From Candidatus Zixiibacteriota bacterium (GTDB lineage Bacteria > Zixibacteria > MSB-5A5 > GN15 > JAAZOE01): a stretch of 64,000 nucleotides of DNA. Below, piece by piece: positions 5,564 to 61,217 of this stretch. Within the stretch, counting starts at the first letter, position 1. Each line of letters starts with the position of its first letter. The stretch is taken from positions 1 to 64,000 of the forward strand of contig DAOUTW010000005.1 of the NCBI GenBank assembly GCA_030668485.1. The letters run 5' to 3'. The position numbers were made by a program, and so were the translations under genes. The notes under the pieces are model-generated. The model searched no databases. It saw only the letters and a list, made by a program, of their open reading frames with translations, and had not been told where the DNA came from.

Positions 5564-6301
5564 CTACTTTAGAAGTACCATCTTTTTTGATTCGGATTCG
5601 GTTTCTGTTTTTAGAGTATAGAAATAAACACCTGAAGCCAGATCACGACCGTCTTTACCAATTCCATCCCAATTCACCGTATAATCGCCTGCCGGTTTTT
5701 CCTCATTAACTAATACTTTGACTAATTGACCGAGAGAATTATAGATGTTTAATTTTACATGACTTCTTTTACTAACACAATACTCAATGGAAGTTGAGGG
5801 ATTGAATGGATTGGGGTAATTTTGCGCCAATTCGTAATTTTCAGGTATATCATCAGATTCTCTATCATCATTTAATCCATTTATAATTGAAAAGCCAATC
5901 ACAAAGTTTTTACTTAAATCGCCTAATGATTGCCTTCCGAAAAAAGTAATCTCATAAATATCGTCACCATCTATATCACAAAATGGTGAATTGCCATAAG
6001 TTAGGTCTGCTCCCGATCCATAATAGTATTCATGACCCGCAATATAAATGGCATTCCATACTCCACTATCCCAATCTACTGTACCGGTTTCACCGTCATA
6101 TATAATAATTCTATTAGTCGCTTTATAAACAAGTTCATCGCCGGGATCATTATCCATATTCTCTGCACCAAGAAATAAAAATGGGTTACTCGTCTCTGGT
6201 GGTTCAACGCTCCAAATTATTCCGATTTGGGCATCTACAGTCGAAGCGCCAAATGCCATCAGAATAAAACCGAAAATAAGAGATTGTATAGCTGTTTTCA
6301 C
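5564..6301 (-). CDS. Secreted protein with T9SS-type C-terminal sorting domain
   Basis: A 245-residue exported protein. The signal peptide covers about residues 1-24 (cleavage near VDA/Q). A middle section carries DxDGDD-like acidic turns (FCDIDGDDIYEI), reminiscent of FG-GAP or calcium-binding loops. The last ~90 residues form the standard tail: AQNYPNPFNPSTSIEY, LNIYNSLGQLV, NWDGIGKDGRDLASGVYFY and a terminal KKMVLLK. This tail directs cargo to type IX secretion or cell-surface attachment in FCB-group bacteria. I use the GTG start because GGAGGT lies 5 bases before it. The upstream ATG would place that site inside the gene. Confidence 0.8.
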   Translation of the reverse strand: MKTAIQSLIFGFILMAFGASTVDAQIGIIWSVEPPETSNPFLFLGAENMDNDPGDELVYKATNRIIIYDGETGTVDWDSGVWNAIYIAGHEYYYGSGADLTYGNSPFCDIDGDDIYEITFFGRQSLGDLSKNFVIGFSIINGLNDDRESDDIPENYELAQNYPNPFNPSTSIEYCVSKRSHVKLNIYNSLGQLVKVLVNEEKPAGDYTVNWDGIGKDGRDLASGVYFYTLKTETESESKKMVLLK

Positions 6302-24664: not shown

Positions 24665-25174
24665 TTATTTCATATCAACCTCAATCATCCCCGGCTTATC
24701 ACCCAGCCAATCGCCCGCGCTGGAATATGGCCAATCCGAAGGATTGTCTACCAGACCGGCCTTGACCGGATTGTTATGGATATAGTCCAACTTTATTCGA
24801 AACTGCTTCTCACTGGTGATTATGACATCATCAAATCTCGTCTTCCATAATCGGAATTTTCCATTTTCTTTTAGGCGATTCCCCATCTTACCGAGTTCAA
24901 GTTTGCCGATTTTTCTTGTGCTGAGACTTTTATAACTTTGCATAAACCGAGAAAGACTGTCGAGCCTTTTCAATCCAAGTAAAAGATGCAAATGGGTGGG
25001 CATAAGGACATATCCCGGCAATGATGCCTTGAAAAAGATTGCGGTTTCACGCAGTTGATTCATGGCCGCTCCGGCGGCCTCTGGAATGTTAAATATAGGG
25101 GTGAAATCTGTGACGGTAGTAGTCACAAAGATTAATGCCGGTTCATCATTATTTATCCTTTTCCGAATCACCAT
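24665..25174 (-). CDS. REP-associated tyrosine transposase (RAYT, Y1_Tnp fold)
   Basis: A 169-residue HUH single-strand nuclease of the IS200/IS605-like Y1 family. The HUH motif is PTHLHLL with H61 and H63. The likely catalytic tyrosine is Y81 in FMQSYKSLSTRKIG. The C-terminal hallmark of RAYTs is YIHNNPVKAGLV with DWPYSS. The gene is bracketed within 8 and 23 bp by inverted copies of a REP palindrome. RAYTs are thought to bind and cut such REPs and spread them. The gene looks intact. Confidence 0.9.
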   Translation of the reverse strand: MVIRKRINNDEPALIFVTTTVTDFTPIFNIPEAAGAAMNQLRETAIFFKASLPGYVLMPTHLHLLLGLKRLDSLSRFMQSYKSLSTRKIGKLELGKMGNRLKENGKFRLWKTRFDDVIITSEKQFRIKLDYIHNNPVKAGLVDNPSDWPYSSAGDWLGDKPGMIEVDMK

Positions 25175-27810: not shown

Positions 27811-29061
27811 ATGCGAACTTTTAGTGCTCTGTTACTGATCGCCCTCGTCGGCCTCTTATGCCAATCCTGCACGAGTCAATCAACCGAGCCGACGTCCTCA
27901 CCAGATCCACCGCGAACCCCATCCGATCTTTCAGCGGTTGAGAAAGATTTAATCGCTTCATCCAATCTGTTTGGGTTGAATCTTTTCAAAGAGATCGTCA
28001 CGCGGGAGGATCCCGATTCCAACGTATTCATCTCGCCTCTGTCGGCCTCGTTCGCTCTGGGGATGACTTTTAACGGTACCGCGCTGGAAACTCGGGACGA
28101 AATGAGGGAGGCGCTTCAATACGGCGATCTCACCACCGATGAAATAAATCAGTCATACAAGAATGTCCTGGAAATTCTGACTCAACTCGACCCAACCGTG
28201 GTCTTTGAAATTGCCAATGGTATATGGTATCGCGAAGGGAAACCGGTGAAGCAGGCTTATGTCGATCTTTGTCAGCAATATTTCAATTCACTGGTCGAGG
28301 AAGTCAATTTTCAGGACCCGGCAGTATTGAATATGATTAATGATTGGGTGAGCGAAGCAACTCATGGGCATATCGACACTATCATCACTCCCCCGGTCAG
28401 CGGCGACCTGGCCCTACTCCTCGCCAATGCCATTTATTTCAAAGGAAGCTGGACGCATTTATTCGACACCAGCGACACCAAAACCGAATCCTTTTTCCTC
28501 CGCGATCAGTCACAAACCGATTGCCGCATGATGCACCGCGACGACACGGTTTTGTTTTTGGCCAACAATCTGTTTCAGGCCGTTGATCTTCCTTATGGCG
28601 ATGAGGCTTTCAGCATGACGGTTTTGCTCCCCAGCTATGGACATACCACCGATGATATAATGGCCCAATTGACAGCGGACAACTGGGCCAGTTGGATGGA
28701 CCAGTTTTCTGAGCAAGAAATTCAGTTGTCTTTGCCAAAATTCAGATTTGAATATGAAACGGGCCTCAATGATATGCTGAAAGCGATGGGGATGCCCAGG
28801 GCGTTCGCACCCGGGATGGCTCAATTTTACGATATGTTCGACGATAGTATAGGTTGGATCGATACTGTTTTTCAAAAGGCGTTCGTCCAGGTGGATGAGA
28901 GCGGCACCGAAGCTGCGGCGGTTACTGTTGTCGCTGTTTACGACTCAATGTATCCGGGGCTATATGCCAACCGCCCGTTTATATTCATGATTCGCGAGCG
29001 TGTATCGGAAACCATCCTTTTCATGGGTAAAATCGAAAACCCGGTTTGGGATGAAGGATGA
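27811..29061 (+). CDS. Serpin 1, predicted lipoprotein
   Basis: A 416-residue serpin. Family landmarks are SNVFISPLSASFALGM, ANAIYFKGSWTHLFD, FSMTVLLP, and the terminal NRPFIFMI / MGKIENPVW. The hinge EsGTEAAAVT (glycine P15 near residue 365) has the small residues needed for loop insertion, so it should be an inhibitory serpin. Counting from P15 as in alpha-1-antitrypsin puts P1-P1' at about Ser-Met. The N-terminus LVGLLCQSC is a relaxed lipobox followed by a Ser/Thr/Pro linker, so it is probably tethered to a membrane. It is very similar to serpin 2. I start at the ATG 7 bases after AAGGAGG. Confidence 0.93.
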   Translation: MRTFSALLLIALVGLLCQSCTSQSTEPTSSPDPPRTPSDLSAVEKDLIASSNLFGLNLFKEIVTREDPDSNVFISPLSASFALGMTFNGTALETRDEMREALQYGDLTTDEINQSYKNVLEILTQLDPTVVFEIANGIWYREGKPVKQAYVDLCQQYFNSLVEEVNFQDPAVLNMINDWVSEATHGHIDTIITPPVSGDLALLLANAIYFKGSWTHLFDTSDTKTESFFLRDQSQTDCRMMHRDDTVLFLANNLFQAVDLPYGDEAFSMTVLLPSYGHTTDDIMAQLTADNWASWMDQFSEQEIQLSLPKFRFEYETGLNDMLKAMGMPRAFAPGMAQFYDMFDDSIGWIDTVFQKAFVQVDESGTEAAAVTVVAVYDSMYPGLYANRPFIFMIRERVSETILFMGKIENPVWDEG

Positions 29062-29129
29062 TGTTCCGCTTGACTCTTTGGTAATTTTGACTATATTATA
29101 GATAGTAATAGAATATTTGGGAGGGAATT

Positions 29130-30371
29130 ATGCACAAAGCGGGAATATTAGTCCTATTGATTTGCGTTGCGCTGAGTTTTATTCAGTGTGACAAGGCAAC
29201 CGAGCCGAAATCTCATAACGATTTGCCGAGACCACCGGCTGAGGTTGAAAAAGAAGTTATCGAGTCGTCAAATCTGTTCGGTTTCAATCTTTTCAAAGAA
29301 GTGATCGCGCGGGAGGATCCCGATTCCAATCTGTTCATCTCGCCCCTGTCGGCCTCATTTGCCCTGGGGATGGCCTTTAATGGGGCTGCCCTGCAAACAC
29401 GAGATGAGATGAGACAAGCCCTGGCGTATGGCAATCTGACCACCACTGAAATAAACGAATCATACCGGAATATCATAGAAAGTCTGACCCAACTAGACCC
29501 GGCGGTGTCGTTTGAAATCGCCAACGGGATCTGGTATCGCGAAGGCAAACCGGTTAAGCAATCCTATATTGACCTTTGCCGGGAATATTTTAATTCGCTG
29601 GTCAAGGAAGTCGATTTTCAGGATCCGGCGGTATTGAATATGATTAACGACTGGGTCAGCGATGCCACGCACGGTCACATCGATACCATTATCACTCCGC
29701 CGGTCAGCGGAGACCTGGCTCTGCTTCTGGCCAATGCCATTTATTTCAAGGGTGGCTGGACAGATTTGTTCGACACCATAAATACTTACACCGTATCATT
29801 TTTCTTGCATGGATACGGCAACCCACCGATCAATTGCCGCATGATGTATCGCGATGATACGATTCTGTATCTTGAAAATGATCTGTTTCGGGCCGTCGAT
29901 CTTCCATATGGAGATGAGGCTTTCAGCATGACCGTCTTACTTCCCAACATAGGATACACTACGGATAACATCGTTGAACAGTTGACGACCGAAAACTGGG
30001 CGCAATGGATGGGGGAGTTTTCTGCAGAGGATATTCGGCTGGGTTTGCCAAAATTCAAGTTCGCATACGAAACCGGCCTCAATGAGATGCTGAAAGCAAT
30101 GGGAATGAATCAAGCATTTTCACGGGATATGGCTCAATTTTACAATATGTTCGAAGATAATGTCGGCTGGATCGATACGGTGTTTCAAAAGGCCTTCGTC
30201 CAGGTGGATGAGAGCGGCACCGAAGCGGCGGCGGTCACCGTTATTGAATTTTACGATGGTTTACCTCCGGGGCTTCAAGCCAATCGCCCCTTTTTGTTTG
30301 TCATTCACGAGCATGAATCCGGGACCATTCTATTTATGGGCAAAATCGCCAATCCGGTCTGGCTTGATTAA
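29130..30371 (+). CDS. Serpin 2, predicted lipoprotein
   Basis: A 413-residue serpin and the nearest paralog of serpin 1; long stretches (for example around YFNSLV and DPAVLNMINDWVS) are almost identical. Landmarks are NLFISPLSASFALGM, ANAIYFKGGWTDLFD and NRPFLFVI. The hinge is ESGTEAAAVT. The expected P1-P1' is about Gly-Leu within EFYDGLPPG, unlike serpin 1. The signal ends LSFIQC, again a relaxed lipobox. GGGAGG precedes the ATG. A 68-bp gap follows serpin 1 and a strong terminator follows this gene, so serpins 1 and 2 may form one transcript. Confidence 0.93.
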   Translation: MHKAGILVLLICVALSFIQCDKATEPKSHNDLPRPPAEVEKEVIESSNLFGFNLFKEVIAREDPDSNLFISPLSASFALGMAFNGAALQTRDEMRQALAYGNLTTTEINESYRNIIESLTQLDPAVSFEIANGIWYREGKPVKQSYIDLCREYFNSLVKEVDFQDPAVLNMINDWVSDATHGHIDTIITPPVSGDLALLLANAIYFKGGWTDLFDTINTYTVSFFLHGYGNPPINCRMMYRDDTILYLENDLFRAVDLPYGDEAFSMTVLLPNIGYTTDNIVEQLTTENWAQWMGEFSAEDIRLGLPKFKFAYETGLNEMLKAMGMNQAFSRDMAQFYNMFEDNVGWIDTVFQKAFVQVDESGTEAAAVTVIEFYDGLPPGLQANRPFLFVIHEHESGTILFMGKIANPVWLD

Positions 30372-30413
30372 GATTTCGGTCCTTTTTCTATCTTTGCATC
30401 TACTCAAGTATTT

Positions 30414-30437
30414 AAAAGCCCCTTTGGGGGCTTTTTT
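30414..30437 (+). terminator. Intrinsic terminator after serpin 2
   Basis: Stem AAGCCCC / GGGGCTT with loop TTTG, followed by TTTTTT. It lies about 45 bp after the serpin 2 stop and splits the array into 1-2 and 3-4. Confidence 0.85.
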
Positions 30438-30556
30438 CTTGGTGAAAATCAAAAATAATCTCAATTTGTGGGAAGAAATATTACCAGGAACTGTATTCCG
30501 GGTAGAATCTTCATAATCCAAACAGGGTTTATTTTGATAACAAGGAGGAACCCAAG

Positions 30557-31762
30557 ATGTCATCCCACTCATGCCCTCGCCTGATCCGCCTGGTAGTATC
30601 AATCGGTATTATTTTCATTTTTACTTTTGAAACGACCCAAGCCGGTGAACTATCCTCCTCGATCAATCGCTTCGGCCTGGAGCTTTTCCGGAAAGTCGTT
30701 AACGCCACCGATAGTGACAGCAATGTCTGTATCTCGCCCCTTTCAGCATCGTATGCTCTGACAATTACTTATAATGGAGCGGCAGGAAAAACGCGAGAGG
30801 ATATGTCTACCGCTCTCGCTCTATCAGGTATGTCTCCCGATGAAGTCAATCAAGCTTACCTCAAATTAACATCACGCCTGACCAAGGAAGACAAGGCAAC
30901 CATCATGGAAATCGCAAATTCCATTTGGTACCGCACTGGACTGGCTGTAAAGGCAGATTTTACGGCGCTTTGCCAGAATAAATTCGATGCCCTGGTCCGT
31001 GAGATGGATTTCTCTAGTCCGGAGGCGGCCGAGATAATAAACAAATGGGTGGCCGACAACACCCGTGATAAAATCAAAAGTATAATCGACCCCCCGATCG
31101 ATCCGGACATTGTCATGATGTTGATCAATGCCATCTATTTCAAAGCTGTCTGGCAAAACCCGTTTGACCCCCAACGAACCGGGCCGGCGCCGTTCACTCT
31201 ACCCGACCGGTCACGTACCGAATGTATGATGATGAACAAAATTGACGCTTTCGATTATTACTCCAACGATCTGTTCCAGGCCATAGAATTGCCATTCGGA
31301 AATGGTCGGTTCGCTATGACGGTTCTATTGCCCGATCAATCGATTACCGCCGATGATCTTATTGCAAAGATGGATGATAAGACTATGTCAGAATGGTTCG
31401 CCAATTTTGAAGAAACAAGTATAATCCTTCACCTGCCGCGGTTCAAGTTCTCAAGTGATTTCGGATTGAATAATATGCTTAAGAAAATGGGGATGGAGAT
31501 TGCCTTCACCGGCAAGGCCGATTTTTCGAACATGGTCGATGACCGTATCTGGATCGATTCGGTAATCCATAAAACTTTCATCCAGGTCGACGAACAGGGA
31601 GCCGAAGCGGCTGCCGCCACGGCGGTGATAATGAAGAAGTCATTTATTCCTTCGATGGTTGTCGACCGCCCGTTTTTGCTCCTTATTCGCGAAGTTGATT
31701 CCGGCGCCATCATGTTCATTGCCAAAGTCGTCAATCCGGTATGGGAAGAGGATGAGAGATAA
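30557..31762 (+). CDS. Serpin 3, secreted
   Basis: A 401-residue serpin with a cleavable-looking signal peptide (FIFTFETTQAGE) and no lipobox, so it is predicted soluble in the periplasm or outside. Landmarks are VCISPLSASYALTI, INAIYFKAVWQNPFD, FAMTVLLPD and DRPFLLLI. The hinge EQGAEAAAAT is alanine-rich. The reactive segment VIMKKSFIP places two lysines at about P3-P2 and Ser-Phe at P1-P1', giving a more basic loop than the others. A one-residue register shift would make lysine P1 and suit a trypsin-like target. AAGGAGG precedes the ATG. Confidence 0.93.
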   Translation: MSSHSCPRLIRLVVSIGIIFIFTFETTQAGELSSSINRFGLELFRKVVNATDSDSNVCISPLSASYALTITYNGAAGKTREDMSTALALSGMSPDEVNQAYLKLTSRLTKEDKATIMEIANSIWYRTGLAVKADFTALCQNKFDALVREMDFSSPEAAEIINKWVADNTRDKIKSIIDPPIDPDIVMMLINAIYFKAVWQNPFDPQRTGPAPFTLPDRSRTECMMMNKIDAFDYYSNDLFQAIELPFGNGRFAMTVLLPDQSITADDLIAKMDDKTMSEWFANFEETSIILHLPRFKFSSDFGLNNMLKKMGMEIAFTGKADFSNMVDDRIWIDSVIHKTFIQVDEQGAEAAAATAVIMKKSFIPSMVVDRPFLLLIREVDSGAIMFIAKVVNPVWEEDER

Positions 31763-31829
31763 ATTGACAGCCCGTCGATGTAAAGAAAAGCCCCCTTTCC
31801 GGGGATAATATTATATAGAGGAGGATATC

Positions 31830-33071
31830 ATGGCCGTCTTGATGCGAATAGTTACGGTGATAGTGATCATTATTTTTTGCCTGTCGGTGGCGCTGGCCGA
31901 AAACCAATCATCCATTTCCGAAATATCAGAAGCTGGTAAACTTGTCTCTCGGTCAGCAAATCGGTTTGGGCTCAGACTATTTCAGGAAGTTGCCACGGAT
32001 GGCGAAGGAAATATTTTTATTTCCCCCATGTCGGTTTCATATGCGCTGGCCATGACACTCAATGGCGCCGACGGCGAAACTCGGAAATCAATTCTATCCA
32101 CTCTGCAGTTGAACGGTATCGATGACATCAACACTTCATTCAAAAACCTGACCGCCTATTTGACCGGGCTTGATCCATTGGTAATATTTGATATCGCCAA
32201 TTCGATCTGGTATTGTGACGGCTTGCCGATCAATGACGCTTTTGTGGATGTCAACCGGGATAATTTTGATGCTCTCGTGCGCGGTCTTGACTTCAGCGTC
32301 CCCAAGGCGGCCGACATCATCAACCAATGGGTAAGCGACAACACCAATGAAAAAATTAAAAAGATCGTCCGTCCGCCCATTGATCCATCGACGATAATGT
32401 TTTTGATAAACGCCATCTATTTCAAGGGAGATTGGACGATCAAATTTGACCCAAACGATACGCGCGATCATCCTTTTTATCCGGCTGAGGGAAAAGAGAC
32501 CACCTGTCGCATGATGTTTAACACTAAGAAGTATGATTATTTTGAAATCGATCTTTTTCAGGCGATAAGTCTCCCCTATGGGAAAGCTGATTTCGCGATG
32601 ACTGTTTTTCTTCCGGATTCATTGAGCAACGTCAACAATCTGATTGATCGCCTCGATGAACAGAATTGGTCCATCTGGCAGGAAAACTTTCATAAGACAA
32701 AAGTCGAACTGGGCCTGCCCCACTTCAAATTCGAATACAAGATTACCCTCAACGAGATTTTGAAATCAATGGGAATGGCCGTCGCTTTCGACGGGCAGAA
32801 GGCCGATTTCAAAAAGATGCTGGAACCCGGGTCGGTGCCCGGACAAAATATATATATTGACCAGGTCCTGCATAAGACTTTCCTGCAGGTTGACGAGGAA
32901 GGTACCGAAGCGGCCGCGGTAACATCGGTCACGATGGGACTGACCAGCGCGATGCCGATGCCAAACCCGGTGATGATTATCGACCGTCCGTTTCTGTTTG
33001 CAATCATCGAAAAGAATTCAGGATCAATCGTGTTCATCGGTAAGGTCACCGACCCGGTTTGGGAGGATTAA
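31830..33071 (+). CDS. Serpin 4, secreted
   Basis: A 413-residue serpin with signal peptide (IVIIIFCLSVALAE, cleavage near ALA/E). Landmarks are IFISPMSVSYALAM, INAIYFKGDWTIKFD, FAMTVFLPD and DRPFLFAI. The hinge EEGTEAAAVT is canonical. The loop from the P15 glycine to the RPF strand is 27 residues, five longer than in serpins 1-3, and carries MGLTSAMPMPNPVM, rich in methionine and proline. Its target should therefore differ. It is closer to serpin 3 than to serpins 1-2. It lies 67 bp downstream of serpin 3 and a strong hairpin follows. Confidence 0.93.
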   Translation: MAVLMRIVTVIVIIIFCLSVALAENQSSISEISEAGKLVSRSANRFGLRLFQEVATDGEGNIFISPMSVSYALAMTLNGADGETRKSILSTLQLNGIDDINTSFKNLTAYLTGLDPLVIFDIANSIWYCDGLPINDAFVDVNRDNFDALVRGLDFSVPKAADIINQWVSDNTNEKIKKIVRPPIDPSTIMFLINAIYFKGDWTIKFDPNDTRDHPFYPAEGKETTCRMMFNTKKYDYFEIDLFQAISLPYGKADFAMTVFLPDSLSNVNNLIDRLDEQNWSIWQENFHKTKVELGLPHFKFEYKITLNEILKSMGMAVAFDGQKADFKKMLEPGSVPGQNIYIDQVLHKTFLQVDEEGTEAAAVTSVTMGLTSAMPMPNPVMIIDRPFLFAIIEKNSGSIVFIGKVTDPVWED

Positions 33072-33118: not shown

Positions 33119-33150
33119 GAAAAGCCCCTTTGGGATGAGAGGGGCTTTTC
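33119..33150. terminator. Hairpin between serpin 4 and the cupin gene
   Basis: The perfect 10-bp stem GAAAAGCCCC / GGGGCTTTTC with a 12-base loop is followed by T-rich DNA on the plus strand. It lies between convergent genes and may serve both. Confidence 0.75.
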
Positions 33151-33177: not shown

Positions 33178-33525
33178 TTAGTAATCGCCGCGAGCCGGAA
33201 CGATACAGATCATGACGAAATCTTCATCGCCGGCATTGGAATACTGATGTTCCTTGTTCGACGGCACCACCGCGAACGAACCGGCGCTTAAGTCGTTTTT
33301 CACACCTTCTATTTCAACCGTACCTTTTCCGGAAATGACATAGTTGAAATGTTCCCAGTCATGGCTATGTTTGGGGGTGTGGCCATCTTTCTGCAGGGTA
33401 AAGACGCGCAGAATATGATCTTTCCACCCCTCTTCCGGGCCGATCGGAACCTGCTTGAGGACATTTTGTATCCCCTCACCCGATATCTGATTTTTCTCGA
33501 TATCTTTTATATTCGCAACGAACAT
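33178..33525 (-). CDS. Cupin domain protein
   Basis: A 115-residue single-domain cupin. Motif 1 is seen as DGHTPKHSHDWEHFNYVISG (metal-ligand histidines and glutamate) and motif 2 as AGSFAVVPSNKEHQYSN. Small cupins bind a metal and act as isomerases, dioxygenases or ligand sensors, and the substrate cannot be told here. GGAGG lies 6 bases before the ATG. It is a single gene between the serpin array and the toxin-antitoxin pair. Confidence 0.85.
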   Translation of the reverse strand: MFVANIKDIEKNQISGEGIQNVLKQVPIGPEEGWKDHILRVFTLQKDGHTPKHSHDWEHFNYVISGKGTVEIEGVKNDLSAGSFAVVPSNKEHQYSNAGDEDFVMICIVPARGDY

Positions 33526-33600: not shown

Positions 33601-34623
33601 CTAATCAATGCTTAACGACTGAGCAAATTCATAATCTATGATTTCCCACTTTTTCGTTTCTCGAAACCCTACTTCTTCATGCGAGTACTTTTCTATTTGG
33701 CTTGCTGAAAAATGCTTAAATTTACTTGTGATATTTTTTATTGAATCGAGTTCAATTTTCGAGAACACGTCCTGATTAGGGCCAACCTTTATGAAAAATC
33801 GTTCCGTTTGGGAATCCCCATCCTCAGATATCTCAGAGTCCATAATTCCTAATCCTTTCATCAATCCAAAAATCTCATCATACTCTTTTGGTACCGGGCC
33901 ATGTATTCCCCTTAGGTATACCATACCGGTAATTGATTCTCCGTATAGTTTTTTATAGAGGAAATCAGCATAAAATGGCAGTTTATTCAATTTTGTTTTG
34001 TATACCGATCCCATTTCCGCCACGAAGAATGCAATCATCTGAATAAATTTATCCATATTAAATCTTCTATTCCCGGAATGCGCCCCCCCATCATAATCGA
34101 AATGAGTGCGTATTAACCAATTGCTCTGATGTTCAAACAATTCCCGTGCATTGTTTACAACAGAATAAATTGCCCGACGAATACTCTCTATATCTCTTTG
34201 ATTGAGGCGGCGGCTATTTGTCAAAAACAAATCTCTCATATTCAGCGGATTTTTTACAAACCTTAGAACTTCATTGTGAGCGACATCTGGCAGCCGTCCT
34301 GATTCATATTGACATATTATTGGCTCGCTCCAAAGCAGTAGTCGCGCGAATTGGCGTTGACTAAATCCATATTTTTCTCTTAGTTTTCGAATATCTTCAG
34401 GATGCAAAAGATTGTGCCTTTGACGGTAGATTTCATACGCCTGCTCTATGTTTTTTTCCTCTTGCCCCATACTTGAAAAATCTCTTTTGCATTTCTGGCA
34501 AACAAAATATTGCGAATTTATTTCTATGCTTTCTGTCTTGACTAATACTGTCTCTTTTTCAGTTCTTTCCTCAATTTCGCATAAGTCTTCGCAGTGCGGG
34601 CAGTATGAATTCATATTATTCAC
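33601..34623 (-). CDS. Panacea-type antitoxin: YgiT zinc finger, HTH and DUF4065
   Basis: A 340-residue antitoxin with three parts. An N-terminal MqsA/YgiT zinc finger has cysteines 8, 11, 42 and 45 (CPHC, CQKC). A helix-turn-helix covers about 77-110 (KYGFSQRQFARLLL, then QYESGRLP). A C-terminal Panacea domain (DUF4065, formerly SocA-like) includes LPFYADFLYKKLYGESITG and YLRGIHGPVPKEYDEIF. The HTH should autorepress the operon, and the Panacea part is known to neutralise varied toxins. Its start overlaps the toxin stop by 8 bp (toxin first, as in mqsRA). The gene is markedly AT-rich compared with its neighbours, suggesting transfer. Confidence 0.88.
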   Translation of the reverse strand: MNNMNSYCPHCEDLCEIEERTEKETVLVKTESIEINSQYFVCQKCKRDFSSMGQEEKNIEQAYEIYRQRHNLLHPEDIRKLREKYGFSQRQFARLLLWSEPIICQYESGRLPDVAHNEVLRFVKNPLNMRDLFLTNSRRLNQRDIESIRRAIYSVVNNARELFEHQSNWLIRTHFDYDGGAHSGNRRFNMDKFIQMIAFFVAEMGSVYKTKLNKLPFYADFLYKKLYGESITGMVYLRGIHGPVPKEYDEIFGLMKGLGIMDSEISEDGDSQTERFFIKVGPNQDVFSKIELDSIKNITSKFKHFSASQIEKYSHEEVGFRETKKWEIIDYEFAQSLSID

Positions 34624-34969
34624 CTCCCTTCAGCGGATAATCAAGTTTCTCTTTAGGTTTATGGAAGGAGATACATGTGCAATGTTTTAGTCCTCCCAAT
34701 TCCCGAAGTTTCAGTTTTATATAGCATTCCATATCATCAACTAATATTCCGAATATCCACGCATCGGTTTCTCCCTGTTTTTTTGAAATGTGGGAGAAAT
34801 TTTCAACCTCAAGGTTTTTTACAATTTCTCTTATTACCGTTTGTGAAAGACCTAATTCTAAGACAAGTTCTCTATTCTTCTTTCTATCTATATACCAAAA
34901 ATCACCTTTTTTAATAGCACTCTCGACCGAATTAAGAAAATCCTCAACGTTTTGTCTTTCGGCCCCCAT
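34616..34969 (-). CDS. MqsR/RelE-fold-type toxin
   Basis: A 117-residue small protein directly upstream of the Panacea antitoxin. The pattern VESAIKKGDFWYIDRKKNREL, LGLSQTVIREIVKNL and a C-terminal ECYIKLKL...CISFH resembles MqsR-family mRNA interferases, which have a RelE-like fold and end with the same KL...SF strands. I use the internal ATG (MGAERQN). The upstream GTG eleven codons earlier overlaps a TATTAT-like promoter element. Assignment rests on pattern similarity and gene order, so moderate. Confidence 0.7.
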   Translation of the reverse strand: MGAERQNVEDFLNSVESAIKKGDFWYIDRKKNRELVLELGLSQTVIREIVKNLEVENFSHISKKQGETDAWIFGILVDDMECYIKLKLRELGGLKHCTCISFHKPKEKLDYPLKGGE

Positions 34970-34994
34970 AATATCATTGCCCCACAAACTTATT

Positions 34995-35073
34995 ATTGTC
35001 ACTATATAATAACATTTTTATCAATCATTTGTTCCTATAAACATACACTATTTTTATATTTTGTCAATCATTT
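34995..35073 (-). promoter_or_regulatory. Candidate promoter and direct-repeat operator of the toxin-antitoxin operon
   Basis: Very AT-rich DNA upstream of the toxin. TCAATCATTT occurs twice (35021-35030 and 35064-35073), 43 bp apart, a possible operator for the antitoxin HTH. A TATTATATAG stretch just before the toxin could be the -10 region. Confidence 0.35.
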
Positions 35074-35155: not shown

Positions 35156-36268
35156 CTACTCAGTCAGCCGTAGCGGCATCAGCAGACAGAGGAAATCGTC
35201 CTTGGATGTATCGGCCGTATAGATTAATCCTGCCGAGACCGGATTGGATAATTCAAAAATCACCTCATCCCCTTCGATCTTACCCAGGATATCGTTGACA
35301 TACCCGGCATTGTATCCGATTTCTATCGCTTCGCCCTTGTACTCACAGGGAAGATTTTCTTTCGCTTCGCCACCGACATCGGTATTGGTCGTCGATAAAA
35401 CCAGGTTATTATTTTTCATCGCGAATTTTACCTGATGGGTCAGCGAATTCGACAGGATTGAAACTCTTCTCACCGATGAATATAAATCTTCCTTAGCGAT
35501 AATCATTTTCTTATCCGACCCGGCCGGGATAACGGCATCATAACTGGGATAAGGACCTTCTATCAAACGCGATCCAACTACGATATCACCCAGATTAAAG
35601 ATAATTCGATTTTCCTCGAAAATGATTCCAATAGTTTCCACATCGTCATCAAGAAACTTGGGAATAAGATCAAGTACTTTGGGTGGGATGATAACATCGT
35701 CGTTGAGACCTTTGAGCATCTTATTTTCACTCGCCACCCGGGCCATGCGATGACCGTCGGTGGCAACCATGGTCATACGGTCACCTTTGGTTTGCCATAA
35801 TACACCGTTTAAGGCCGGCCTGGTTTCATCGCGCGAACATGCGAAAGTAGTTCTCGTGATCATCTTGATCAGAGATTCAGCTTCGACCGTAACCTGCTTT
35901 TTAATATTGACCGCCGGCAGTTCCGGAAACTCATCAGGAGAAATCCCTCCGATTTTATAACTTCCGTTAGGGACTTTCAATTCGATACGGTTAGAGGTCC
36001 CCTCAAAAGAGATATCGCTCTCGGGCAACTCTTTTATGATATCAAACAGCATCCTTCCGGGAATTACGGCCGATCCTTTTTTGGAAATATCAGCATCAAG
36101 GGTGGCGATGATTGTCACATCGAGATCGGTAGCTGATATTTTTAGCTTCTTATCGAGACATTCAAGAAGAATGTTTGAAAGAATTGGCAAAGTTGATTTG
36201 GCCGGTACTACCGAAAGAACGGATTGCAGATAGTGCGTCAAGCGCGATTTCGGAAGAGAAAACTTCAT
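35156..36268 (-). CDS. dnaN: DNA polymerase III beta sliding clamp
   Basis: A 370-residue clamp subunit of normal length. It begins MKFSLPKSRLTHYLQSVLSVVPAKSTLPILSNIL and contains ATDLDVTI, FACSRDETRPALNGVL and TDGHRMARV. The C-terminus IYTADTSKDDFLCLLMPLRL corresponds to the partner-binding pocket motif. It tethers polymerase III to DNA. AAGGAGC lies 8 bases before the ATG. It follows dnaA on the same strand across a 278-bp spacer containing DnaA-box-like sites. Confidence 0.96.
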   Translation of the reverse strand: MKFSLPKSRLTHYLQSVLSVVPAKSTLPILSNILLECLDKKLKISATDLDVTIIATLDADISKKGSAVIPGRMLFDIIKELPESDISFEGTSNRIELKVPNGSYKIGGISPDEFPELPAVNIKKQVTVEAESLIKMITRTTFACSRDETRPALNGVLWQTKGDRMTMVATDGHRMARVASENKMLKGLNDDVIIPPKVLDLIPKFLDDDVETIGIIFEENRIIFNLGDIVVGSRLIEGPYPSYDAVIPAGSDKKMIIAKEDLYSSVRRVSILSNSLTHQVKFAMKNNNLVLSTTNTDVGGEAKENLPCEYKGEAIEIGYNAGYVNDILGKIEGDEVIFELSNPVSAGLIYTADTSKDDFLCLLMPLRLTE

Positions 36269-36546: not shown

Positions 36547-37911
36547 TCAGTTAGTCAGGCCCCGGGTGATTTGATCGAGTCTCTGGCGGAAATCGGAATC
36601 CTCGTCAATATGCTTCTGAATTAGATTACAGGCATGTATAACCGTGGAATGATCCCGGCCGCCAAAAACCTCGCCGATCGCTTTAAGCGAATTTTTGGTA
36701 AGCGTTCTTGACAGATACATCGCGACCTGTCGTGCGAGAGCGATATTTTGAGTTTTTTTCTTGGCTGAAAGCAAATCTATACTAACCCCAAACGCCTCGG
36801 CCACCACTTTCTTGATCTGATCGATGGAAATCGACCGTTTTCTGGTCCGGAAAGTATCGGAAAGAACCCGTTTGGCCATTTCGAGGTTAATTTCCTCATT
36901 GTTAACCGAAGAATAGGCCAAAAGGCGGATTAGGGAACCCTCAAGTTCCCGGATATTACTGGTTACCGAATTAGCGATGAAAGAAATAACATCTTCGCCG
37001 ATGATAATATCCTCAGCCTCTATCTTACGCTGCAGAATGGCCATCCTGGTTTCCATGTCGGGCGGCTGAATATCGGTCACCAGACCCCATGAAAATCGCG
37101 ACAGGAGCCGCTCTTCCATCCCTTTGATATCTTTGGGAGCGCGATCGGAGGAAAGAACAATCAGTTTTCCGACATTGTACAAGGTGTTGAAGGTGTGGAA
37201 AAACTGTTCCTGGGTCGATTCCTTACCGGAAAAAAACTGTGTATCGTCGATCAAGAGAGCGTCCACATTGCGATAAATGTTTATGAAATTGGTGGTGGTG
37301 TTGCTTGAGATGGAGTTGATAAAATCAGATGTAAATTTCTCTGAGGTGGCATATATCACTCTCTTGGTCGGATCGTTGCTGATTATATAATGGCCGATGG
37401 CCTGGAGCAGGTGAGTTTTGCCAAGTCCCACGCCGCCATAAATATATAGCGGATTATACTTTGTTTTACCCGGGGCCTTGGCAACTGCCTGAGCGGCGGC
37501 GCTGGGAAACTGGTTGAAATTACCGACTACCAGGTTTTCAAAAATATAGCGTTCGTTGAGCATACCTGTTTGAGGCGAACGCTGTACTACCGGCCTTGGA
37601 GGTTCGGTCGTCCCACTTTCAGATTGGAAACAAAGCTCAGTTTGGTTTTGATCTTCCTGGTTGATCTGAAAACTGAAGGATACATTACGTCCGCATGACT
37701 GCATCAGCGATTCTTCGATCAAATCGCCATAATGTTCTTGTATCCACTCGGCTACAAAACCGTTCGGGACCCCGATTTTTATTCCTCCGTTGCCGTCAGA
37801 AGCGCCTGAGGTACGCTTCAGCCAGGTTGCATACGATTGCTTCCGGATGCGGTGTGAGATATAAGCAAGACAATCCTGCCAGACCTTTCCGTGGTCAAAA
37901 TCAATAGACAT
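36547..37911 (-). CDS. dnaA: Chromosomal replication initiator DnaA
   Basis: A 454-residue AAA+ initiator. Domain I is at the N-terminus (WQDCLAYISHRIRKQSYATWL) and domain II is a short Gln/Glu-rich linker. Domain III has Walker A GGVGLGKTHLL and Walker B ALLIDDTQFF. Domain IV, the DNA-binding part, has the signature GGRDHSTVIHACNLI near the C-terminus. I start at MSIDFDHGKV, with GAGGGG upstream, rather than at the frame's first ATG 40 codons earlier, which lies among DnaA boxes. Autoregulation by those boxes is likely. Confidence 0.96.
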   Translation of the reverse strand: MSIDFDHGKVWQDCLAYISHRIRKQSYATWLKRTSGASDGNGGIKIGVPNGFVAEWIQEHYGDLIEESLMQSCGRNVSFSFQINQEDQNQTELCFQSESGTTEPPRPVVQRSPQTGMLNERYIFENLVVGNFNQFPSAAAQAVAKAPGKTKYNPLYIYGGVGLGKTHLLQAIGHYIISNDPTKRVIYATSEKFTSDFINSISSNTTTNFINIYRNVDALLIDDTQFFSGKESTQEQFFHTFNTLYNVGKLIVLSSDRAPKDIKGMEERLLSRFSWGLVTDIQPPDMETRMAILQRKIEAEDIIIGEDVISFIANSVTSNIRELEGSLIRLLAYSSVNNEEINLEMAKRVLSDTFRTRKRSISIDQIKKVVAEAFGVSIDLLSAKKKTQNIALARQVAMYLSRTLTKNSLKAIGEVFGGRDHSTVIHACNLIQKHIDEDSDFRQRLDQITRGLTN

Positions 37912-38340
37912 TTTAATAAACCCCTCACGAGACGTTTTCCACAATGGTTGTTGATAAGTCGACGACACCTTCTCTGTACTATTCAATAGGTTACAAACAA
38001 TCCTCAATGTGTGGTGGTCTTTTATCCACAATCATTATATTTTTGGGCGGTCAAAATCTATTGTAAAACGATGAACCTAAATACCCCTTTGTACTTATCC
38101 ACATTTTACTAACACTATACCTATCACTAGGTTCCGTTACTAAAATAAGGAATCACTTACTTTTGTCAAGGGGCGAGGGCTAAATTAATATGCATAAAAC
38201 TGTAATCACTTTTCACGCCATTATTTATAAGAGCATTTAAAAATTTCTTATCAACAATCAAATTTTGATTACCATCGGCAAAATTGCTCTTCGATCATAA
38301 GTACAAAATTAGCAAAAAGTAAGGAAAAAACGTTTTTGTT
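37912..38340. other. Putative replication origin (oriC) upstream of dnaA
   Basis: Two perfect TTATCCACA boxes (38022-38030 and 38095-38103), TTATCAACA at 38248-38256 and, inverted, at 37949-37957, and TTTTCCACA at 37935-37943. The flanking DNA from about 38104 is strongly AT-rich and could be the unwinding element. Its position next to dnaA-dnaN is the usual one for oriC. Confidence 0.75.
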
Positions 38341-57854: not shown

Positions 57855-60800
57855 ATGTTAAGACGATATGCTATCGTTTGTCTCCTCTCCATGCTAATTG
57901 TAAGTCTGTTTTTGATTTCAACGGTATGCGGCGCCGACCAACCCGCTCAGCCGTTGAGGATGAGCATGAAAGCGCCGGCCAGGCAAGGGCCGGTTTATAG
58001 TTTCCCCAAACTGGAAGGCAATTATGATCCCGGAGTGAGTACCGCTACGGGCGCTTCCCCCACATTGAATCTGCGGGGGACTCGCAGCCGGTCCAACCCG
58101 GATACGTTGGGCACTACCACTTATGATCAGCAACACAACTGCTCTGTGGCTCGCCAGGTGGAACATCGAGCCATGTATAGCGTTCCGCCCAATAACTTGT
58201 ATGGCGACTATATCCATTTTGACTGGATGGCGCAGGATAATTTCATTCTTGGCGACAACCGCGGCATAGGTTATCAGGCATATGAAATATCGAATTGCAG
58301 CCATGTTTTCGATCAGGGAGGTCTTCGTGTCGAGGGAGCCTATGCGGGATATGTCGGAATCGATGCTGACCCCGGAGGCTGGGCGATTATTACCGCCCAT
58401 CAAAATGACGGCGATGTTTATGCCGCCAAGGCCTACTGGGATTTCACCATAGCAGGACCGGCATATGGTGTCTTTACTTCGGAATTACCCGGAAGTGATG
58501 TTTTTGGATGGTGGACCAATGATGGAACCGGACCCCTCAACGAAAACTCATGGCCACGCATCGAATGGGATATCGATGGCACCGGTGACCAGGTGCTTCA
58601 TATGGTCGCTTCCGAGTATTCGGGAGGGGCGGCGGACCCGCAGACGATTTCTTATTATCGTCGAGTCGGTCCCTACGGCACCGGAAACGGAGTATGGTCG
58701 CCCCAGCGGGTAATCGACACGGTTGTCAATATAAACGTGACAGTAGCCTCTTCTCCCGTAACCGACAGGGTCGCTGTGGTATGGAATGCACCGACCGATT
58801 ATAAGCGCGATCAATTCAATGAATTTGAATTTCAATGGGAAAATGACGTCTGGTTTGCTATTTCAACCCAGAACGGCCTTGACTGGGCCAGCGAAACCGT
58901 ATCATCCGCAAACGGCGACCCCTCCATCGGGCATACTGTCGACCAGGGTATCGGCGTCCCCGCGCTGACCGGAGTCGGCGGCAACCTGACCGTTTATGAT
59001 GCGGCCAATCGATACAAGGCGTACAGTGATATGTCTTCGTTGATAACCACCGGCGATGTTCTTAATATCGTCTGGGGATGTTTGCGATGGGATGATTCGA
59101 CGAGCACCTATCGCCGCCAATCGGCGATTTTCCACTGGAAGGAAAGTGATGACATCCCCGGTCCGGGACGAGCGATCGTTTACGCCGAATGGGATACCGG
59201 TGGTACCTGCTTTGCCTATGCCTGGGGAGCCGATGTCGCAAAAATGACCATCTCCGAATGTGACGGCAAGCTTTATTGCTTGTACACTCAGTTCGGCACG
59301 GCGGACAATCCTTGCGGTGACGTCGATTCCGAAAACAGTATCACCAACGGATATCTCTATATGTCGGTTTACGACCCGACCTTTGACGCCTGGGATCGTC
59401 CGCAGCGAGTGACCGATATTCCCGAGACTCCGAATGGATGTACGCCGGGCGATGCCGGCAATTGTAACAGTGAATACTGGGCGTCGATGTCGCGCTTCGG
59501 GCGCATCGATACCTGTATGTTCGCGAGTCAACCGGTGCTCGATATTCTGTATATCAACGACAAAGCGCCGGGAGACGCCATCGACGAAAATTCAGGCTTC
59601 TGGACGACAAATCCGGTGATTTGGTGGACTTACCCCTGCCGAGCGGCGGTGGCCGAACCGGGTTACCGTGATGATGCCGGCGCCGGATATGGCGTCAGCT
59701 ATGAAAACAATGTCCTGTATGTCCGACCCGGCAGCGATACTACTTTCACGCTCAACGTCGAGAACGACGGTCTTCTGGTCAACGAAATTTCACTGGAAAC
59801 GTCGACAGGCGATGGGACTGTGAGCATTGCACCTGATATCACAGGCACAATTCTCCCGGTTCAAACGATCGTGCCGATCCAGATTACCATCGCGGCGACC
59901 ATAGCGGCGACCGATCCGTCTACCGTTACCGGAACTATTACGGTGACGCATGAGGCCGAAGGCAGCCCGCGTGAAATTCCTCTTGAAATTCTGGTTTCGT
60001 CCACCTATGAACCGCTCCAGTCGGTCGATCTGGCAACAGTCTGTAAGAATCTGCGAGTTTACAACAACGGCCAGATGAGCAACAACGCCTATAATGCTTC
60101 GCTTGATTTCAACGATATCCATGATCCGGACGATTGTGGCAATATTTATCTCTATGATGCCTCGCCGATCATCTGTCGTGATGTCGGCGGAGAAACCAGG
60201 TGTTATTTCGCCGCTTATGATAATTCATTCGGCAGCGATCATGCCCTTCGTCAAATAACCCCCATGTATGTCGATTCCTTGACGAATGCCGACTATACCT
60301 ACAGCAGCGCCGAATTCATCACCGGCGATACCGCGATAGGCCTTATTGTCGAATACTACGCCCCCAAGGCGGAAGCCGACTGTAATTTCATTATTGAAAA
60401 ACTCCGCTTCTGGAATCGTGATCATAGCGGTGAGGGAGTCATCTTGACTGGCGTAGCCGCCGGCGAGGTGCTTGACTGGGATATCCCCAGTCATGAGGAC
60501 GGCTCCAACAATGAATCGGGTGTCGATGAAGAACGTCTCCTGATTTACCAGAACTGCTACGAACACGACCCCTGTGATACGACTTATTACTGTCGCAGGT
60601 ATGGCGGAATAGCAGCCTATAAAGATACTCCTTTCAAAAACTATATGACGATTGAAAACGACGTCTATGTTTATGATACCGGTCCCTTTGGAAACGATGC
60701 ACCGCTTCCGGCCGATACGATATACGGATTGATGACCGGTAATACCGGTTTCAGCACCGCGGCTATCGATAGCTGTGAGGACTTGACAACTCTGGTTACC

Positions 60801-61217
60801 TTCGATGTTTATGATTTGCAGCCGAATGATACCCAGTGTGTGGTCAAAATTCTCACAACTTCACTCTCGGACCCGAATGCCGGCGCTTTGAAAGGTTATG
60901 TCGATGAAGCCAACACCTTTATCGATAATCATTCTGAAATAGCCTGCGATGCCGGTCCGGGACCGTGCGACTGCGATCCCGGCAATGCCAATGGCGACGA
61001 TGCTGTCAACGTCGGTGATGCCGTATACTTGATTAGCTACATCTTCAAGGGCGGTCCGCCGCCGGTGCCGTATGAAACCTGCAGCGGTGACGCCAACGGC
61101 GATTGCGCCTGCAATGTCGGCGATGCCGTGTATATTATCAGCTATGTCTTCAAGGGCGGTCTGCCGCCGGTCGACTGCGAGACGTGGCGACTAAACTGCG
61201 GCGAAACAATTTTCTAA
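57855..61217 (+). CDS. Large exoprotein with dockerin-like tail (3)
   Basis: A 1120-residue exported protein. Signal peptide (IVCLLSMLIVSLFLISTVCGA). Residues ~130-560 contain recurring blade-like segments (GGWAIITAHQNDGDVYAAK, SSPVTDRVAVVWNAP, FAYAWGADVAKMTISECDG), which suggest a BNR/sialidase-like beta-propeller. Residues ~610-720 look like an Ig-like domain (RPGSDTTFTLNVENDGLL through IPLEILVSS). A beta-rich domain follows. The tail has two dockerin-like loops, PGNANGDDAVNVGDAVYLIS and GDANGDCACNVGDAVYIIS, and ends CETWRLNCG. No catalytic motif seen. AAGGAGC precedes the ATG and a strong terminator follows. Confidence 0.75.
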   Translation: MLRRYAIVCLLSMLIVSLFLISTVCGADQPAQPLRMSMKAPARQGPVYSFPKLEGNYDPGVSTATGASPTLNLRGTRSRSNPDTLGTTTYDQQHNCSVARQVEHRAMYSVPPNNLYGDYIHFDWMAQDNFILGDNRGIGYQAYEISNCSHVFDQGGLRVEGAYAGYVGIDADPGGWAIITAHQNDGDVYAAKAYWDFTIAGPAYGVFTSELPGSDVFGWWTNDGTGPLNENSWPRIEWDIDGTGDQVLHMVASEYSGGAADPQTISYYRRVGPYGTGNGVWSPQRVIDTVVNINVTVASSPVTDRVAVVWNAPTDYKRDQFNEFEFQWENDVWFAISTQNGLDWASETVSSANGDPSIGHTVDQGIGVPALTGVGGNLTVYDAANRYKAYSDMSSLITTGDVLNIVWGCLRWDDSTSTYRRQSAIFHWKESDDIPGPGRAIVYAEWDTGGTCFAYAWGADVAKMTISECDGKLYCLYTQFGTADNPCGDVDSENSITNGYLYMSVYDPTFDAWDRPQRVTDIPETPNGCTPGDAGNCNSEYWASMSRFGRIDTCMFASQPVLDILYINDKAPGDAIDENSGFWTTNPVIWWTYPCRAAVAEPGYRDDAGAGYGVSYENNVLYVRPGSDTTFTLNVENDGLLVNEISLETSTGDGTVSIAPDITGTILPVQTIVPIQITIAATIAATDPSTVTGTITVTHEAEGSPREIPLEILVSSTYEPLQSVDLATVCKNLRVYNNGQMSNNAYNASLDFNDIHDPDDCGNIYLYDASPIICRDVGGETRCYFAAYDNSFGSDHALRQITPMYVDSLTNADYTYSSAEFITGDTAIGLIVEYYAPKAEADCNFIIEKLRFWNRDHSGEGVILTGVAAGEVLDWDIPSHEDGSNNESGVDEERLLIYQNCYEHDPCDTTYYCRRYGGIAAYKDTPFKNYMTIENDVYVYDTGPFGNDAPLPADTIYGLMTGNTGFSTAAIDSCEDLTTLVTFDVYDLQPNDTQCVVKILTTSLSDPNAGALKGYVDEANTFIDNHSEIACDAGPGPCDCDPGNANGDDAVNVGDAVYLISYIFKGGPPPVPYETCSGDANGDCACNVGDAVYIISYVFKGGLPPVDCETWRLNCGETIF

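What the first reader, a model, noticed from the sequence alone, without database searches (positions are those of the whole stretch)
27811..33071. Four tandem serpins in a bacterial genome
Four consecutive full-length serpin genes on one strand each keep the alanine-rich hinge needed for inhibition. Known knowledge: bacterial serpins are sparse and usually single. By eye, 1 and 2 are recent duplicates, and 3 and 4 form a second, more diverged pair. A dedicated set of irreversible protease inhibitors suggests defence against several proteases, whether from predators, hosts or neighbours, or the cell's own secreted enzymes.
Basis: partly seen in the sequence, partly recalled or inferred. Interest (0 to 1): 0.82.

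Follow-up and report, generated by a model that had tools for sequence, protein, structure and literature searches.

The report
Four exported serpins beside dnaN
An uncultured Zixibacteria-type bacterium carries four intact protease-trap (serpin) genes in a row beside its replication genes; such rows recur in its relatives and other phyla, so the array is real but a new example of a known kind, with protease targets still unknown.

Summary
Four full-length serpins (Pfam PF00079, E 1.5e-97 or better) lie in tandem and are the genome's only ones. They are 42-72% identical, and even the closest pair agrees at only 53% of third codon positions, so they are not assembly copies. All keep the inhibitory hinge. 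AlphaFold models of S1 and S3 match cleaved and native miropin. S1 and S2 carry lipoprotein-type signals; S3 and S4 other export signals (by eye).

The interpretation needs correction. (1) Arrays recur: 58 of 133 genomes of this phylum have serpins, one with five in tandem; a Gemmatimonadota genome has four and a Prolixibacteraceae genome at least four. (2) The four are not one radiation (AU p 0.002). S1/S2 are recent duplicates whose nearest kin lie in another family; S3/S4 pairing is unresolved. (3) The locus is old: two family members keep one lipoprotein-type serpin at the same cupin-dnaN-dnaA position. (4) Loops differ, implying different targets, but 'defence' is undemonstrated.

Exploratory lead: genomes with S1/S2-type loops usually encode a lipoprotein caspase-like protease (8 of 9 versus 23 of 124; post hoc; family-stratified p 0.005-0.02).

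Verdict: a new member of a known kind.

The parts
27811..29061 (+). S1, serpin with lipoprotein-type signal (LLCQSC); reactive loop ESGTEAAAVTVVAVYDSMYPGLYANRPF at 28897-28980
   Evidence: model (pLDDT 91.6), best PDB matches cleaved miropin
29130..30371 (+). S2, serpin with lipoprotein-type signal (SFIQC); loop ESGTEAAAVTVIEFYDGLPPGLQANRPF at 30210-30293
   Evidence: 72% identical to S1
30557..31762 (+). S3, serpin with non-lipoprotein export signal; loop EQGAEAAAATAVIMKKSFIPSMVVDRPF at 31592-31675
   Evidence: model (pLDDT 83.4, loop disordered), best PDB match native miropin
31830..33071 (+). S4, serpin with non-lipoprotein export signal; loop EEGTEAAAVTSVTMGLTSAMPMPNPVMIIDRPF at 32895-32993, same length and T-S centre as miropin
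29070..29099 (+). promoter-like site in the S1-S2 gap (TTGACT..TATATT/TATTAT)
   Evidence: consensus match only
30414..30435 (+). intrinsic terminator-like stem after S2, separating S1-S2 from S3-S4
33119..33150 (+). intrinsic terminator-like stem after S4
33178..33525 (-). cupin gene; its neighbourhood with serpin, dnaN and dnaA is conserved in two family genomes
35156..36268 (-). dnaN, conserved neighbour
36547..38031 (-). dnaA, conserved neighbour

Best explanation
The locus is an array of four exported, inhibition-competent serpins in two probable transcription units (S1-S2, S3-S4). Two are probably membrane-anchored lipoproteins and two soluble. Each presents a different reactive loop as bait. 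A protease that cuts the loop is trapped as a covalent acyl-enzyme when the loop inserts into sheet A, so the set protects envelope proteins from several protease specificities, most probably the cell's own abundant exported proteases together with stray foreign ones. The array grew at an old serpin site beside cupin-dnaN-dnaA by one recent duplication (S1/S2) added to older, divergent copies. Shown by sequence: family, hinge, loop diversity, synteny, tree. Inferred: inhibition, localisation, targets, benefit.
For: Pfam and fold: S1 modelled like cleaved miropin (5ncu, rmsd 1.0), S3 like native miropin (5ncs). Hinge P17-P9 kept in all four and near-invariant in 166 relatives while P2-P1' vary. 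Lipobox-like signals in S1/S2 and in 112 of 173 serpins by a crude rule, none in S3/S4. Terminator-like stems after S2 and S4. A single lipoprotein-type serpin at the same cupin-dnaN-dnaA site in G001 and G003. One clade for the four rejected, p-AU 0.0018. At least 16 subtilase-domain and 72 T9SS-tail matches in the genome.
Against: No inhibition data. No protease gene was seen beside the array, but only selected neighbours were scanned. Serpin presence does not track subtilase density (3.84 vs 3.88 per Mb in genomes at least 90% complete; p 0.92), and the five-serpin genome G118 has only 5 subtilase candidates. P1 positions of S1-S3 are ambiguous by one residue. Signal types were judged by eye and a crude rule, without a signal-peptide predictor.
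Confidence: 0.68

Rival explanations
1. The array is mainly a shield against foreign proteases (predators, hosts, competitors), diversified by an arms race in the loops.
For: Loops differ while hinges stay fixed; surface-type lipoprotein signals; arrays recur in unrelated phyla; no correlation with the cell's own subtilase density.
Against: No predator or host link seen at the locus; S1/S2-type loops are conserved among relatives ([I/Y]-D-S) rather than running away.
Confidence: 0.3
2. Regulation of particular own proteases, for example S1/S2 against the lipoprotein caspase-like (C14) proteins.
For: 8 of 9 genomes with strict [I/Y]-D-[STGV] short-loop serpins carry the C14 lipoprotein versus 23 of 124 others; family-stratified p 0.005 (strict) to 0.02 (looser class); no such link for C11. 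The window's genome has three C14 copies, two in tandem.
Against: Post hoc class and test; weaker for all acidic loops (stratified p 0.16); G028 lacks it; genomes of one genus are not independent; the DAC motif suggests basic-P1 specificity by analogy with metacaspases (own knowledge). Catalytic activity untested.
Confidence: 0.12
3. All four arose in place from one founder gene by tandem duplication.
For: Tandem order, similar unit spacing, similar terminator stems; clean in-place arrays exist elsewhere (L057, L110).
Against: One clade rejected (lnL 53 lower, p-AU 0.0018); S1/S2 group with two serpins of family f3 at 100/99.
Confidence: 0.1
4. Non-inhibitory serpins (chaperone or storage-like).
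For: P14 is Ala in S3, unusual; some relatives have odd hinges (TIAAAF, L133/L134).
Against: Small residues at P12-P9 in all four; models fit cleaved and native inhibitory serpins.
Confidence: 0.06

Closest known systems
Miropin (Tannerella forsythia; PDB 5ncs, 5ncu, 5nct, 5ncw)
   Same: Top sequence and fold match; S4 loop has the same length and Thr-Ser centre; broad inhibitor that uses several bonds in its loop (title of the original paper, as cited in PMC5127057).
   Different: Falls in a Bacteroidota clade away from the window serpins; the window has four genes.
Tandem serpin arrays in relatives: L131 (five, G118), L132 (three, G127 / DeMMO3_3), L050 (three), L057 (four, Gemmatimonadota), L110 (at least four, Prolixibacteraceae)
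   Same: Adjacent full-length serpins on one strand, mostly lipoprotein-type.
   Different: Different sites and different serpin lineages; some are local duplications, others composite.
Siropins 1 and 2 (Eubacterium siraeum, PMC5127057)
   Same: More than one divergent serpin in one bacterium, both inhibitory.
   Different: Two genes, gut bacterium of another phylum.
Conserpin, tengpin, chloropin (PDB 5cdx, 2pef, 8gxv)
   Same: Same fold; solved relatives found by sequence or fold.
   Different: Not part of such an array as far as I know; conserpin is a designed protein (own knowledge).

Membership tests
Serpin superfamily (PF00079, MEROPS I4) | full-length domain over the curated cut-off | tested here: met
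   328-372 bits against a cut-off of 27, positions 2-370
Serpin superfamily (PF00079, MEROPS I4) | serpin fold | tested here: met
   S1 and S3 modelled; Foldseek to miropin E 3e-41 and 3e-45; S2 and S4 by homology only
Inhibitory serpins | hinge P17 E, P15 G, small residues P12-P9 | tested here: met
   P9 is Val in S1, S2, S4 as in most relatives; S3 has Ala at P14
Inhibitory serpins | metastable state and SDS-stable covalent complex | not testable with these tools
   needs purified protein
Miropin orthologues | clade with miropin | tested here: not met
   miropin nests in a Bacteroidota clade; it was used as outgroup
Spence 2021 prokaryotic groups S/T/U | placement in the group phylogeny | not tested
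   reference sequences not available here beyond miropin
Bacterial lipoproteins (S1, S2) | lipobox cysteine after a hydrophobic stretch | tested here: inconclusive
   QSC and IQC by a crude rule, -3 residue atypical in S1; no signal-peptide predictor at hand

The most novel reading that the evidence does not exclude
The short-loop acidic serpins S1/S2 are dedicated inhibitors of the organism's own lipoprotein caspase-like proteases, giving a bacterial envelope serpin-caspase control circuit.
Probability: 0.07. Interest if true: 0.85.

Novelty: new member of a known kind. Interest (0 to 1): 0.42.

Why it matters
What prokaryotic serpins do is an open question (PMC8233489). This phylum offers a natural experiment: the same dnaN-side locus with one lipoprotein-type serpin (two family genomes), none at that site (two genomes with readable flanks) or four, plus recurrent arrays elsewhere. 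It suggests that bacterial serpin arrays are assembled both by local duplication and from divergent lineages, and it supplies loop classes whose protease targets can be tested. A serpin-caspase pairing, if confirmed, would be new for bacteria as far as I know.

Tried and rejected
Assembly duplication: rejected by divergence. A single local radiation: rejected by AU test. S3+S4 as a clade: neither supported nor rejected (p 0.49), and S3+S4 with the dnaN-side orthologues likewise (p 0.27). Serpin presence driven by own subtilases: no association per Mb. Any-serpin versus C14 or C11: none. NCBIfam gave no family. Literature: no paper holds both serpin and Zixibacteria, and no retrieved paper was found to describe bacterial tandem arrays. 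The original miropin paper was not held. Centring a genome search on a locus of another phylum was not possible.

Full report
What is there. Four ORFs on the + strand, 27793(ATG 27811)-29061, 29130-30371, 30557-31762 and 31830-33071, are full-length serpins. No other serpin occurs in the 4.5 Mb genome, estimated 99.95% complete. Amino-acid identities are 72% (S1/S2), 50% (S3/S4) and 42-45% otherwise; even S1/S2 agree at only 53% of third codon positions, so these are well-diverged genes and not assembly copies. Each has its own Shine-Dalgarno-like sequence. Strong terminator-like stems follow S2 (30414-30435) and S4 (33119-33150), and a promoter-like site lies in the S1-S2 gap, so S1-S2 and S3-S4 are probably two units (consensus matches only).

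Organism. The window therefore belongs to Zixibacteria; this is an inference from contig lengths and group codes.

Function of the parts. All four keep the hinge Glu(P17)-x-Gly-x-Glu-Ala-Ala-Ala-Val/Ala. Across 166 serpins of the set P17, P15, P12 and P10 are invariant while P2, P1 and P1' vary. The S1 model (pLDDT 91.6) has the loop as a long strand and best matches protease-cleaved miropin (5ncu, rmsd 1.0). The S3 model (pLDDT 83.4) has a disordered, exposed loop and best matches native miropin (5ncs). The two states that a trapping serpin must reach are thus both compatible with these sequences. Inhibition itself is inferred.

Loops. S4 (TSVTMGLT-SAMP, 33 residues from P17 to RPF) resembles miropin in length and Thr-Ser centre, the commonest residues in the set (P1 Thr in 91 of 166, P1' Ser in 93 of 166). 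S3 (TAVIMKKS-FIP, 28 residues) has two lysines before the scissile region. S1 (TVVAVYDS-MYP) and S2 (TVIEFYDG-LPP) belong to a short-loop class of 28 residues with an acidic residue at P2 counted from the hinge, or P1 counted from the C-terminal anchor; the class recurs in Zixibacteria and Gemmatimonadota. S1 and S2 have lipobox-like cysteines, S3 and S4 do not (crude rule), so anchored and soluble inhibitors appear to coexist.

Origin. In G001 and G003 one lipoprotein-type serpin sits at the same place, next to cupin, dnaN and dnaA; in G002 and G004 that place has none, and G006 has its serpin at a rearranged site. A careful tree of 48 serpins joins S1 and S2 (100/100) and puts them with serpins of G025 and G031 from another family (100/99), while S3 and S4 lie unresolved near the dnaN-side orthologues and a Candidatus Electryonea serpin. 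Forcing the four into one clade costs 53 log units (p-AU 0.0018); S3+S4 alone is neither supported nor rejected (p 0.49), nor is S3+S4 with G001 and G003 (p 0.27). The array is therefore composite: a recent duplicate pair beside older, divergent copies. Transfer and differential loss cannot be told apart here.

How unusual. Of 133 genomes of the phylum 58 have serpins: 38 with one match, 11 with two, 4 with three, 3 with four, 2 with five (some matches are partial, on short contigs). L131 (G118) is a five-gene array; L132, L133 and L134 hold about three; named loci add L050 (three), L057 (four, Gemmatimonadota) and L110 (four plus a partial, Prolixibacteraceae). The tree shows in-place expansions (L057, L110) and a composite array (L046). 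One search found no paper with both serpin and Zixibacteria, and none of the papers retrieved was found to describe bacterial tandem arrays.

What it is for. The genome has at least 16 subtilase-domain matches, 72 T9SS-tail matches and three trypsin-family matches, two of which look by eye like HtrA/Deg proteins. Protection from own exported proteases is therefore plausible, but serpin presence does not track subtilase density (p 0.92 in the more complete genomes). A lead came from the acidic loops: the genome encodes three lipoprotein-type C14 caspase-like proteins with a DAC motif and, in the two tandem copies, an SGHG motif (SGHA in the third). Eight of nine genomes with strict [I/Y]-D-[STGV] short-loop serpins have this protein against 23 of 124 others; stratified by family p is 0.005, or 0.02 with a looser class, and the C11 control shows nothing. 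The class was defined after looking at the data, congeners are not independent, and metacaspase-like motifs suggest basic rather than acidic specificity (own knowledge), so this is only a hypothesis. Plant serpins are reviewed as potential inhibitors of serine and cysteine proteases (PMC10609998, title and abstract only), and the Arabidopsis serpin-metacaspase pair is the precedent I recall (own knowledge).

Verdict. Real and intact, but a new member of a known kind. The value lies in the composite origin, the conserved dnaN-side locus and testable loop classes.

Noticed in passing
33601-35002 (- strand): MqsR-like toxin and HTH/Panacea (MqsA-like) antitoxin pair inserted between cupin and dnaN; in the six family genomes cupin directly adjoins dnaN.
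   Followed up: partly
L193:1548-3508 and L194:1266-2144 (same genome, other contigs): Three lipoprotein-type caspase-like (PF00656) proteins, two in tandem; 31 of 133 phylum genomes have a clear homologue.
   Followed up: partly
L133:7274-8476 and L134:1756-2955: Related serpins with an odd hinge, EEGTIAAAF / EKGTIAAAF, possibly non-inhibitory or altered; a neighbouring serpin in L133 is split by a stop.
   Followed up: no
24665-25174 (- strand): Small transposase-like protein (REP-associated type, by eye); homologues lie near serpins in L128, L148 and L169.
   Followed up: no
57855-61217 (+ strand) and 5576-5818 (- strand): A 1120-aa protein with a weak dockerin-like end, below the curated cut-off, and an ORF with a T9SS sorting tail.
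   Followed up: no
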